Assembly (NCBI RefSeq): GCF_001650195.1
Contig: NZ_LXYR01000002.1
Location: forward strand, 1 to 64,000
Origin: Phormidesmis priestleyi BC1401
GTDB taxonomy: Bacteria; Cyanobacteriota; Cyanobacteriia; Leptolyngbyales; Leptolyngbyaceae
Length of the DNA stretch: 64,000 nt
Reading direction: 5' to 3'
In this document: positions 1 to 3,825 of the stretch, piece by piece
Layout: each line of letters begins with the position of its first letter
Numbering within the stretch: the first letter of the stretch is position 1
Translations under genes and position numbers: made by a program
Notes under the pieces: generated by a model
Database searches by the model: none
Seen by the model: the letters and a program-made list of their open reading frames with translations, nothing else
What the model was told of the DNA's origin: nothing

Positions 1-684
1 GATCACGGCTTGAATAACTGGCTAACCTGTATCTCAAATGTAGGCACTTCGTTCATGGTGGATGGCTTGCATCTTAAGAGTCTGAATCAGTTTTATAACA
101 AGCAAGTTGCCACCCTCAAAGAGAATCAGCCTCAAGGTTTTTGGTCTAAGCGATTAGCTGCCATCACTGAGAAACGCAATCGTCAGGTTAGGGATGCGGT
201 CAATAAAGCGGCTAGAAAGGTGATCAATCATTGTCTTGAGAACAGAATCGGCACCGTCGTGTTTGGCTGGAATCGAGGGCAGAAAGACGGTGCCAATATG
301 GGTGCTAAAACCAATCAGAAGTTTGTCCAGATTCCCACGGGCAGACTCAAAGAGAGAGTCTCGCAACTGTGCGAACAGCACGGGATTCGATTCGTTGAGA
401 CGGAAGAAAGCTATACGTCTAAGGCTTCGTTTGTGGATGATGATTTCCTGCCTAAAATCGGTGAGAAACCCGAAGGGTGGAAGGAGTCAGGCAGACGAGT
501 TAAACGTGGCTTGTACCGCACTCAAAACAATCAGTACATCAATGCTGATTGCAACGGTGCGGCAAACATCTTGCGAAAAGTAGCGACAACTTTAGGGCTA
601 TGCCTTGAGGGAGTCAGTAGGGGCGCTTTGTTAACGCCTTTGAAGGTTCGCTTGTGGACTCTTCAAGAATCCCCTCGCCTTTAG
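1..684 (+). CDS. tnpB: TnpB-family RNA-guided nuclease (IS200/IS605-type), 5' part outside window
   Basis: The reading frame is open from base 1, so the gene continues upstream. The visible part begins at the RuvC-I aspartate (DHGLNNW). It continues through a helical region to EESYTSKAS (about residues 136-144) and the RuvC-III aspartate in NADCNGAANILRK near residue 183. This architecture is typical of TnpB, the RNA-guided DNA endonuclease of IS200/IS605 elements. Two points are unusual against canonical TnpB: there is no CxxC...CxxC zinc ribbon between TSKAS and NAD, and the usual RuvC-II glutamate position reads VVFGWNRG, with a glutamate instead just before TSKAS. No tnpA is visible. The last codons run into the element's right-end hairpin. 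Recognition is strong; whether the full gene is intact cannot be seen. Confidence 0.9.
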   Translation, partial: DHGLNNWLTCISNVGTSFMVDGLHLKSLNQFYNKQVATLKENQPQGFWSKRLAAITEKRNRQVRDAVNKAARKVINHCLENRIGTVVFGWNRGQKDGANMGAKTNQKFVQIPTGRLKERVSQLCEQHGIRFVETEESYTSKASFVDDDFLPKIGEKPEGWKESGRRVKRGLYRTQNNQYINADCNGAANILRKVATTLGLCLEGVSRGALLTPLKVRLWTLQESPRL

Positions 685-700
685 GCATGGGGAGTATCAA
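660..700 (+). mobile_element. Right end of the tnpB element, with candidate omega-RNA 3' end
   Basis: A CCCC...GGGG hairpin (671-674 with 689-692, with inner GCC/GGC pairing) straddles the tnpB stop codon. It is followed by AGTATCAA, which resembles the right ends of cyanobacterial IS200/IS605-type elements. In this family the guide RNA scaffold ends at the element boundary and the next bases act as the guide, so the guide here would begin around 701. The exact boundary is inferred from family resemblance, not measured. Confidence 0.55.
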
Positions 701-708
701 CATTCCCA

Positions 709-2673
709 TTGGTCACACTTCAACAGACGATCGACCAGTGGATCAAGACCGTCCCTAATCACAACCCTGAGTTAGCGACGCAGCTACGATCGGGCATATC
801 AGACGTAAATGCCACGATCGTCCTGCTTCAACAGCAGCTAACTTGGGAGCGAGAACAGCGTCAGCGAGCCGAATCTGAAGTTCGCTTTCTCGAACGAACA
901 ACCCCAGCGATTGACCAGCCTACCATTTTAGAATATCAGCGCACAGAAGCCGCCCTCGCCAAGCGAGAAGAACTGCTGCGAACCGTTGTCACCAACCCGC
1001 CAACGATTTTATATGCCCTCGATCGCGATGGCATCTTTATCCTCTCAGAAGGCAAAGGGCTAGAAGCCATGAACCTCAAATCAGGTGAAGTGGTCGGACG
1101 GTCTATCTTTGACTTATATAAAGATCACCCCGATATGCTTCAGGCGGCTCATCAAGTTCTCAATGGCGCAGAAAGAGAGTTGATCTTGAACCTAAACGGG
1201 ATCACTATCGCTGATTATCTCTCGATCGTCCTTCAAGAAACGCAAGCCCAGCAAGAACGTCAACGCGCCGAAGAGCGTCTGCGTCTATTTGAGTCAGTCG
1301 TCGTCAACGGACGTGATTCTGTGATCATCACGACTGGCGACCCTGAAAATCCTCAAATCACGTATGTCAACGCTGCTTTTATAGCATCAACAGGCTACGC
1401 GCCAGAGGAAGTCATCGGCAAAACTCCTCGCCTTTTGCAAGGACCGAAAAGCGATCGTGCTCAACTCAACAAAGTTCGTCAGGCGCTGCTTGATCAAAAA
1501 TCGATTCAGATAGAGCTAGTCAACTACCGCAAAAACGGCTCTGAGTTTTGGGTCGATCTCAATCTAGTGCCCATTTTGGACGATCATGGAGCGTTGACTC
1601 ACTATGTTGCCTTGCAGCGAGACATCACCGATCGTAAGTGGGCGGAAAAAGCGCTGATTGCGACTCAGGCACGTCTAAAGTATCTGCTCTCGTCCAATCC
1701 ATCAGTCATCTACACCTGCCATCCAAATCGCAACCGCTCCTGCACATTTGTGAGCGAAAATATTACTCAGCAATTAGGCTATGAAGTTTGGCAATACCTG
1801 AAAGAATCCCGCTTCTGGCTCGATCGGATTCATCCCGATGACTTAAGCAGGGTGCTAGAGCACGTCTCTCAACTCTTTGAGATTGGGCAACTCACCTGTG
1901 AATATCGATTTCTTCACAAAGATGGCTCTTATCGCTGGCTGCGAGACGGCATGAAACTGCTGCGCGATCAAGGGCAACCTGTCGAGATTATCGGCTCAGT
2001 CGTGGACATCACCGATCGCAAGCGGGCAGAAAATCAAATTCGTGCGTCGCTCGAAGAAAAAGAGGTGCTGCTTAAAGAAATTCACCATCGAGTCAAAAAT
2101 AATCTTCAGGTCATCTCTAGTTTGCTCAAACTGCAAGCTGGGTATATTAAAGACGATCGCATCTTAGAGGTGTTTAAAGAAAGTCAAAACCGCGTTCGAG
2201 CGATGGCACTCATTCACGAAAAGCTTTACCAATCGGAGGATTTAGCCAAAAGCAATTTCGCGGAGTATATCCATAGTCTAGCAACTGATTTATTTCGCTC
2301 TTACTCAGTGCATTCGCGAATGGTTAAACTCAATCTGAACGTCAAAGATGTGCGTCTCATCATCGATACTGCTATTCCCTGTGGACTGATCATTAACGAG
2401 CTAATCTCAAACTCGTTGAAATATGCGTTCTCAGCAGGTCAAACAGGAGAAATTAATATTCATTTCTTTTCTGAAACTGAAGATTGCTATACGCTCATCG
2501 TTCAAGATAACGGTTCAGGGTTCCCAATAGATTTGGATTTCCGCAACACAAAATCTTTAGGCTTACAGCTAGTGTGTAGCCTCACTAAACAGCTACATGG
2601 CACCATCGATTTAGAGCGCGATCGTGGAGTTGCATTTAAGATCACGTTTGCCGAGCAAAAACAGAAGGGTTAG
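709..2673 (+). CDS. Multi-PAS sensor histidine kinase, HisKA_2/LytS-like
   Basis: A 654-residue soluble sensor kinase. A short coiled coil (about 35-65) is followed by three PAS regions: about 88-170 (apparently shortened at its end), 195-310, and 325-437 (PAS_3 type, HKDGSYRWLRDG). A HisKA_2 dimerisation/phosphoacceptor domain carries HHRVKNNLQ (His459/460), and an ATPase domain carries the N-box NELISNSLKYAF (about 563) and DNGSGFP (about 600). It autophosphorylates on His and passes phosphate to a receiver; the next two genes both carry one. The PAS2 motif GKTPRLLQG lacks the LOV cysteine. The only start I can place is TTG at 709, nine bases beyond the tnpB element end, and the frame upstream is closed by the tnpB stop, so the native 5' end may have been lost. 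Confidence 0.88.
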   Translation: MVTLQQTIDQWIKTVPNHNPELATQLRSGISDVNATIVLLQQQLTWEREQRQRAESEVRFLERTTPAIDQPTILEYQRTEAALAKREELLRTVVTNPPTILYALDRDGIFILSEGKGLEAMNLKSGEVVGRSIFDLYKDHPDMLQAAHQVLNGAERELILNLNGITIADYLSIVLQETQAQQERQRAEERLRLFESVVVNGRDSVIITTGDPENPQITYVNAAFIASTGYAPEEVIGKTPRLLQGPKSDRAQLNKVRQALLDQKSIQIELVNYRKNGSEFWVDLNLVPILDDHGALTHYVALQRDITDRKWAEKALIATQARLKYLLSSNPSVIYTCHPNRNRSCTFVSENITQQLGYEVWQYLKESRFWLDRIHPDDLSRVLEHVSQLFEIGQLTCEYRFLHKDGSYRWLRDGMKLLRDQGQPVEIIGSVVDITDRKRAENQIRASLEEKEVLLKEIHHRVKNNLQVISSLLKLQAGYIKDDRILEVFKESQNRVRAMALIHEKLYQSEDLAKSNFAEYIHSLATDLFRSYSVHSRMVKLNLNVKDVRLIIDTAIPCGLIINELISNSLKYAFSAGQTGEINIHFFSETEDCYTLIVQDNGSGFPIDLDFRNTKSLGLQLVCSLTKQLHGTIDLERDRGVAFKITFAEQKQKG

Positions 2674-3825
2674 ATGTCAACCACCAATATTCTCATTGTT
2701 GAAGATGAAAGCATCATTGCTTTAGATATTCAAAATAGTTTGGTTAATGCAGGCTATACCGTAATTGCGATCGCAACTTGTGCAGAGGAGGCACTCGATC
2801 TAACGGCTCAATATGTGCCTAATTTAGTGCTGATGGATATTCGTCTGCGCGGTGAAATAGATGGCGTAGAAACCGCCGAAAAAATTCGCAGAGAGTTCAA
2901 TCTTCCGGTTGTTTATCTGACCGCCCACGCGGACGAAAATACCTTACAGCGCGCAAAGATTACCGAGCCGTTTGGTTATATTCTCAAACCCTTTGAAGAT
3001 CGGGAGTTGATTACCACGATCGAGATTGCTCTTTCTCGCCACAAAGCCGAAGGTGCCATTCGGTTAGCGCTTGAAAGAGAGAAAGAACTCAATCAACTCA
3101 AATCGCGATTTATCTCTGTGGTCTCCCATGAATTCCGCAATCCTCTGAATGCGATTCTTTTCTCGACTGAGCTTTTAGAGCGCTATGACTCTGAACTCTC
3201 AGCCGAGCGAAAGCATGGATATTTGCAGCGCATCAAAATATCAGTGCGGCGAATGAGTCAATTATTGAATGATGTTTTAACGATCGGAGAAACCGAATCA
3301 GGAAACTTACCGTTTGACCCTCAGCCGATTGACCTTCTCCAATTTTGTAAGGATATTATTGACGAACTGCAGCTAAGTCAAGCGATGCATTGCTCCATCC
3401 AGTTTTCTCACAGCCACACAAATTTTTTATTGTTAGAAAATTCGTCTTCTCCATGCTTAGACGAAAATCTTTTGCGTCACATCTTGACCAATTTGTTATC
3501 GAATGCAGTTAAGTATTCTCAACAGGGCAAGAATGTAGAACTTAACTTAATTTATAGTAATAAAGATGTTGTTTTCCGCGTTCAAGATTGCGGGATTGGG
3601 ATTCCAATAAGTGACCGATCGCGGCTGTTCGATTCTTTCTATCGTGCCAGCAATGTTAAGACTATTCCTGGAACAGGGCTAGGATTATCGATTGTCAAAC
3701 AGTGTGTTGATCTACACGGCGGCACGATCGAAGTAATCAGCGAAGTTGAGATAGGAACGACCTTTATAGTCACGCTACCGTTGAAGCACTACCCGTTAAC
3801 TTATGAAGAAAATTTTAGTCATTGA
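2674..3825 (+). CDS. Hybrid receiver-histidine kinase
   Basis: A 383-residue protein with an N-terminal receiver domain (LVLMDIRL, phosphoacceptor Asp55; conserved Lys105 in LKPF). A short linker leads to a HisKA domain (VVSHEFRNPLNA, His152) and an ATPase domain (DENLLRHILTNLLSNAVKYS, DCGIGIP, GTGLGLSIV). It starts with ATG directly abutting the stop of the upstream kinase (TAGATG), so the two are translationally coupled. The receiver probably takes phosphate from the upstream HisKA_2 kinase and controls the attached kinase, whose own target may be the overlapping third gene. The relay order is inference from gene order. No DNA-binding or membrane domain is present. Confidence 0.92.
   Translation: MSTTNILIVEDESIIALDIQNSLVNAGYTVIAIATCAEEALDLTAQYVPNLVLMDIRLRGEIDGVETAEKIRREFNLPVVYLTAHADENTLQRAKITEPFGYILKPFEDRELITTIEIALSRHKAEGAIRLALEREKELNQLKSRFISVVSHEFRNPLNAILFSTELLERYDSELSAERKHGYLQRIKISVRRMSQLLNDVLTIGETESGNLPFDPQPIDLLQFCKDIIDELQLSQAMHCSIQFSHSHTNFLLLENSSSPCLDENLLRHILTNLLSNAVKYSQQGKNVELNLIYSNKDVVFRVQDCGIGIPISDRSRLFDSFYRASNVKTIPGTGLGLSIVKQCVDLHGGTIEVISEVEIGTTFIVTLPLKHYPLTYEENFSH

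What the first reader, a model, noticed from the sequence alone, without database searches (positions are those of the whole stretch)
1..684. TnpB without zinc ribbon and with a relocated RuvC-II glutamate
The stretch between TSKAS and NADCNGAANI has no CxxC pairs, and the segment where canonical TnpB carries the catalytic glutamate reads VVFGWNRG. A glutamate pair instead stands at EESYTSKAS. Clades of TnpB with rearranged catalytic sites are known; this looks like one, and its activity and guide rules are less studied than for canonical TnpB.
Basis: partly seen in the sequence, partly recalled or inferred. Interest (0 to 1): 0.6.

Follow-up and report, generated by a model that had tools for sequence, protein, structure and literature searches.

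The report
TnpB nuclease with relocated catalytic glutamate
The start of this window holds the back half of a transposon-encoded RNA-guided DNA-cutting enzyme (TnpB) whose catalytic glutamate sits in an alternative, already described position and whose zinc ribbon is gone; it is a well-formed member of a large, poorly studied branch rather than a new kind of enzyme.

Summary
Window 1-684 encodes the last 227 residues of a TnpB. There is no CxxC pair. A glycine (VVFGWN) fills the canonical RuvC-II Glu slot, and the second Glu of EESYTSKAS falls exactly in the published 'Ealt' register (six residues before the first zinc-ligand position). The 5' end is missing only because the contig starts there, exactly at the RuvC-I Asp. 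The genome holds 8 right ends and 8 left ends of the same element, and the assembly breaks inside it. Among 117 distinct relatives (cyanobacteria, Firmicutes, archaea, viral contigs, an H. pylori IS607 TnpB), Asp1 is invariant, the Ecan slot is always Gly, and Ealt is Glu in 116; 21 canonical TnpBs of the same order show the opposite. An AlphaFold model places the three acids at classic RuvC positions in secondary structure. The element is IS608-like: 8/8 insertions follow TTAC, 8/8 end TCAA, and relatives carry a Y1 TnpA next to tnpB. The 3' end folds into a covarying reRNA. The window copy interrupts a histidine-kinase gene. Most likely an active TTAC-TAM RNA-guided nuclease. The relocated Glu is already published; the zinc-free form is widespread but little discussed in papers I could read.

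The parts
1..684 (+). 3' part of tnpB (last 227 aa; equals residues 194-420 of L017)
   Evidence: 86% identity to L017 over 194-420
1..3 (+). RuvC-I catalytic Asp (DHG); first codon of the contig
   Evidence: Column D194, invariant in 117/117 relatives and 21/21 canonical TnpBs
265..267 (+). Gly in the canonical RuvC-II Glu slot (VVFGWN; many canonical TnpBs of the same order read VAYEDL)
   Evidence: Gly in 117/117
403..408 (+). Glu pair of EESYTSKAS; the second Glu (406-408) is the alternative catalytic Glu (Ealt)
   Evidence: E329 column: Glu in 116/117; first Glu (E328) in 106/117; ExxxxxxC register of PMC10711439
415..549 (+). Stretch where the zinc ribbon should be: no CxxC; the first CxxC is replaced by SxxD and the second has no Cys counterpart
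547..549 (+). RuvC-III catalytic Asp (NADCN)
   Evidence: D376 column, Asp in 116/117 (one gap)
585..615 (+). reRNA hairpin inside the tnpB coding end: helices 585-587/613-615 and 591-597/603-609
   Evidence: Compensatory changes; 94.3% of cells paired over the three helices (this hairpin and 622-638) against 31-48% for slid controls
622..638 (+). reRNA hairpin GGCG/CGCC (622-625 with 635-638)
   Evidence: helix 3 (89.5% paired, two pairs with changes on both sides)
667..670 (+). Right guide tetranucleotide GAAT (GR, as in IS608)
670..693 (+). Right-end subterminal palindrome/hairpin (IPR), terminal stem of the reRNA
   Evidence: folds in the window and most relatives despite sequence change
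697..700 (+). Right cleavage site TCAA; last base of the element is 700
   Evidence: 8 genomic copies identical to 700, then 8 different flanks
701..720 (+). Guide-encoding flank of this copy (host DNA directly 3' of the element)
   Evidence: guide length inferred from known TnpBs
709..2673 (+). Remainder of a PAS-domain histidine kinase gene interrupted by the element after its TTAC
   Evidence: Joining the C50 left flank to window 701 restores a 663-aa frame MQLTELPFPLVTLQQ...

Best explanation
This is the 3' part of an intact tnpB of an IS605-organised, IS608-like transposon present in eight copies in a cyanobacterial genome. TnpB binds a right-end RNA made from the 3' end of its own gene plus about 16-20 nt of flanking host DNA. 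It recognises empty donor sites that read TTAC followed by the guide sequence and cuts them with a RuvC site made of Asp (RuvC-I), Glu (Ealt, end of strand 5) and Asp (RuvC-III). The cut allows the element to be restored by repair after the single-strand Y1 transposase has peeled it out. The zinc ribbon between Ealt and the last Asp is replaced by a stretch without metal ligands. Shown here: sequence anatomy, clade-wide conservation, TTAC/TCAA ends, covarying reRNA, precise insertion. Inferred: nuclease activity, guide length, metal coordination by Ealt, and a divergent tnpA in the unassembled middle of this genome's copies.
For: Family profiles. Triad columns: D194 117/117, E329 116/117, D376 116/117 with one gap, Gly at Ecan 117/117; the opposite pattern in 21 canonical TnpBs. 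Ealt sequences fall together in a FastTree with support 0.94. AF2 model of the 86%-identical relative: pLDDT 87, pTM 0.81; beta4 276-282 ends at the Gly, beta5 323-327 ends at the Glu pair, helix 375-391 starts at the last Asp. Near full-length structural matches to Cas12f (Z 24), ISDra2 TnpB (Z 21.4), mimivirus Fanzor2 (Z 18.8). In SpuFz1, E541, D383 and D606 coordinate Mg; the spacing D-E-D of 135 and 47 here resembles that and fits the published Ealt pattern. 8/8 left ends follow TTAC, 8/8 right ends are TCAA. GR/CR covary: GAAT with TCAA 37, AAAT with TTAA 7. Empty site in a same-genus genome and a restored kinase frame at the window copy. Y1 TnpA adjacent to tnpB in at least 25 relatives, including the closest, L017. 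reRNA covariation.
Against: No coordinates were available, so Glu-Asp distances in the pocket were not measured. The N-terminal half of this genome's tnpB and the middle of the element are not in the assembly, so intactness is inferred from the identical copies and from L017. No activity data. Relatives were gathered by homology to the query, so the clade statistics are biased towards it.
Confidence: 0.87

Rival explanations
1. A nuclease-dead TnpB (TldR-like or decaying) that still binds RNA and DNA and acts as a repressor or does nothing.
For: Canonical Glu is gone and zinc ribbon is gone.
Against: All three acids of the alternative triad are almost invariant over members sharing only about 30% identity; eight near-identical, recently mobile copies; one relative (L237/L238, identical in this region) has lost E329, which shows what loss looks like and that it is rare.
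Confidence: 0.06
2. Truncated pseudogene: the fragment is all that exists.
For: ORF starts at the window's first base; no copy in the assembly covers the N-terminal 193 residues.
Against: The other seven right-end contigs stop at nearly the same place inside the element, and all eight left-end contigs stop after 90-93 bp of it: the signature of an unresolved repeat. Relatives are full length.
Confidence: 0.04
3. The catalytic third acid is Glu 328 (first of the pair) rather than 329, or the two share the role.
For: E328 is Glu in 106/117; the one member lacking E329 keeps E328.
Against: E329 is the stricter column (116/117) and fits the ExxxxxxC register of Fanzors.
Confidence: 0.08

Closest known systems
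Ealt TnpBs (D-Phi-G and DPG clades) of PMC10711439 (NAR 2023)
   Same: Glu moved from the canonical strand to six residues before the first zinc-ligand position; spacing D-x-G-x(120-160)-E
   Different: That paper's search pattern requires two CxxC pairs; here both are gone. RuvC-I reads DHG (H/P/S/R/Q in close kin, I/L in distant kin)
Pro-Fanzors and Fanzor2 (e.g. mimivirus Fanzor2, 9b0l)
   Same: Ealt; fold match Z 18.8
   Different: Pro-Fanzors have DPG, a zinc finger and an IS607 serine recombinase; kin of this element carry a Y1 TnpA and no zinc finger
IS608 (H. pylori) transposon
   Same: Inserts 3' of TTAC, ends in TCAA, guide tetranucleotides AAAG (left) and GAAT (right) before subterminal palindromes (PMC5934647)
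   Different: Host and sequence; the IS608 TnpB itself was not compared here
H. pylori plasmid IS607 TnpB (WP_125301198.1)
   Same: No CxxC, Gly at the Ecan slot, EERFTSK at Ealt
   Different: About 31% identity to L017; paired with an IS607 transposase; DPG
ISDra2 TnpB and Cas12f
   Same: Overall fold (Z 21.4 and 24); for TnpB, a guide RNA from the element's 3' end
   Different: Canonical Glu position and zinc ribbon

Membership tests
TnpB (IS200/IS605/IS607 OrfB) | Curated family profiles matched over cut-off | tested here: met
   PF01385, PF07282, NF040570
TnpB (IS200/IS605/IS607 OrfB) | WED/REC plus RuvC fold over the full length | tested here: met
   On the 86%-identical relative L017: pLDDT 87, matches spanning residues 1-393
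TnpB (IS200/IS605/IS607 OrfB) | reRNA encoded at the 3' end of the element | tested here: met
   Covarying helices and terminal hairpin; transcription not testable here
TnpB (IS200/IS605/IS607 OrfB) | RNA-guided cleavage | not testable with these tools
   Needs an assay
Canonical TnpB (Ecan plus zinc ribbon) | Glu at the end of strand 4; two CxxC pairs | tested here: not met
   Gly in 117/117; CxxC absent in the window protein
Ealt TnpB | Glu six residues before the first zinc-ligand position, canonical Glu lost | tested here: met
Pro-Fanzor | DPG at RuvC-I, zinc finger and IS607 serine TnpA | tested here: not met
   DHG, no CxxC; neighbours in kin are Y1 TnpA
IS608-like IS200/IS605 element | Insertion 3' of TTAC, right cleavage site TCAA, AAAG/GAAT guide tetranucleotides | tested here: met
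   8/8 and 8/8; AAAG before the left palindrome, GAAT before the right
IS608-like IS200/IS605 element | Y1 TnpA in the same element | tested here: inconclusive
   Present in at least 25 relatives including L017; the region is unassembled in this genome, whose only Y1 hit (C1) is not linked to a tnpB hit
Nuclease-dead TnpB (TldR) | Loss of RuvC catalytic acids | tested here: not met
   All three acids of the alternative triad present
Cas12f | CRISPR array association | not tested
   Fold similarity only; the gene lies in an IS with TTAC/TCAA ends

The most novel reading that the evidence does not exclude
The zinc-free Ealt TnpBs form a biochemically distinct class: with no ribbon in the target-nucleic-acid-binding loop, and with the Glu on strand 5, they may cut target DNA without collateral single-strand cleavage and use different loading rules. 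That would make this IS608-like lineage a compact, Fanzor-like nuclease from an element with a Y1 transposase.
Probability: 0.2. Interest if true: 0.55.

Novelty: new member of a known kind. Interest (0 to 1): 0.3.

Why it matters
It is a clean natural test case for the Ealt active site without a zinc ribbon. The TAM (TTAC), guide start and element ends are fixed by eight independent insertions, so a cleavage assay can be designed directly. If active, it would show that neither the canonical Glu nor the zinc ribbon is needed in bacterial TnpB and would widen the comparison set for Fanzors.

Tried and rejected
A single-sequence search of solved structures found nothing useful; the profile search did. 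RNAalifold on the 225-column alignment missed the terminal right-end hairpin, whose bulge varies in position; single-sequence folds recover it. Rfam gave no match to this reRNA. A PNAS 2023 census of TnpB catalytic-site rearrangements (known to me from memory) is not in the paper library, so whether it names this zinc-free branch could not be checked. No paper in the library combined IStron or TldR with TnpB under the terms tried. The single Y1 protein in the own genome (C1) was rejected as the partner: it is not near any tnpB hit and does not look like the TnpAs next to tnpB in kin.

Full report
What was checked. The window begins at base 1 of contig C2 of a 5.55 Mb, 213-contig draft genome. 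ORF 1..684 has no start because the contig begins there; the first codon happens to be the RuvC-I aspartate (DHG). The protein fragment matches the OrfB_IS605 and Cas12f1-like TNB profiles and NCBI's guided_TnpB model.

Why the gene looks truncated. Seven other contigs hold the same DNA from about window base 94-97 to base 700, then diverge. Eight further contig ends hold the same 90-93 bp left end. Nothing in the assembly covers the middle. Eight left ends and eight right ends of one repeat with the centre missing is an assembly gap, not a biological truncation. The closest relative, on the cyanobacterial MAG contig L017, has the whole element: 1,821 bp from TTAC|CGGAA to TATCAA, with a divergent tnpA and a 420-aa tnpB.

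The active site. I aligned 42 sequences of the family, then 143 including 21 canonical TnpBs from the same order, TnpBs from plasmids and TnpBs from viral contigs. Over 117 unique members, Asp194 is invariant, Gly282 fills the canonical Glu slot in all, Glu329 is present in 116 and Glu328 in 106, and Asp376 is present in 116 with one gap. The canonical set has Glu at its usual place and mostly Pro or Arg at 329. The two states are almost perfectly exclusive, and Ealt members group together with 0.94 support in a FastTree. The spacing Asp-x-Gly to Glu and from Glu to the first lost cysteine (six residues between) equals the published Ealt signature (PMC10711439). Two relatives keep zinc-ligand cysteines together with Ealt (a Halorubrum and a C. 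difficile plasmid TnpB), which suggests that Glu relocation and loss of the ribbon are separate events; tree support for the zinc-free group alone is low (0.44), so the order of events is open.

Structure. AlphaFold2 on the alignment gave pLDDT 87 and pTM 0.81 for L017. Strand 4 ends at Gly282, strand 5 ends at the Glu pair, and the last helix begins at Asp376. The best solved matches are Cas12f (Z 24), ISDra2 TnpB (Z 21.4) and mimivirus Fanzor2 (Z 18.8), all over nearly the whole chain. In SpuFz1, D383, E541 and D606 take part in metal binding (PMC10432273), so such an arrangement is known to build a site. I could not measure distances in my model.

The element. All eight left flanks end in TTAC and all right ends are TCAA. 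These are the IS608 cleavage sites, and the IS608 guide tetranucleotides AAAG and GAAT stand before the two palindromes (PMC5934647). Across relatives GAAT goes with TCAA (37) and AAAT with TTAA (7), a compensatory change; one clear exception is L062. For one copy the empty site exists in a same-genus genome, and the own genome's left and right flanks meet exactly at TTAC|. For the window copy, joining the left flank on C50 to window base 701 restores a 663-aa histidine-kinase frame. At least 25 relatives carry an IS200/IS605-type TnpA close upstream of tnpB, divergent in about 15 and co-directional in about 10.

The guide RNA. The last 140 bases of the element, most of them coding, carry three helices whose pairs are kept by compensatory change (94.3% paired, covariation score 0.56; slid controls at most 48% and 0.16), plus the terminal hairpin. 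The guide would start at base 701.

Verdict. The relocation is a published state, and in these collections the zinc-free form is common (more than 110 distinct sequences from a few capped searches). The value lies in a well-delimited, probably active example with a known TAM.

Noticed in passing
window 701-2673, joined to the left flank on contig C50 (L197): The transposon interrupts a PAS-domain histidine kinase gene near its sixth to seventh codon; without the element the frame is 663 aa and intact.
   Followed up: yes
G000:C1:95397-95741 (L097): The only Y1-family protein found in the own genome is not near any tnpB hit and differs from IS200-type TnpA; it may be a RAYT-like (REP-associated) protein. 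Neighbouring ORFs look repeat-rich.
   Followed up: no
L237 and L238 (viral contigs), TnpB at 2001-3155: The only relatives with Lys at the Ealt column (HEKSYTSK), keeping the preceding Glu; a candidate inactivated or re-rearranged copy.
   Followed up: no
L282 (Halorubrum) and L283 (C. difficile plasmid): TnpBs with Ealt that retain zinc-ligand cysteines: possible intermediates between zinc-ribbon Ealt and zinc-free Ealt TnpBs.
   Followed up: partly
L018, L021, L022, L025-L027, L031, L033, L060, L090 versus L017, L034, L044, L068: tnpA is co-directional with tnpB in one group of close relatives and divergent in another, so the element's layout has switched within one TnpB family.
   Followed up: no
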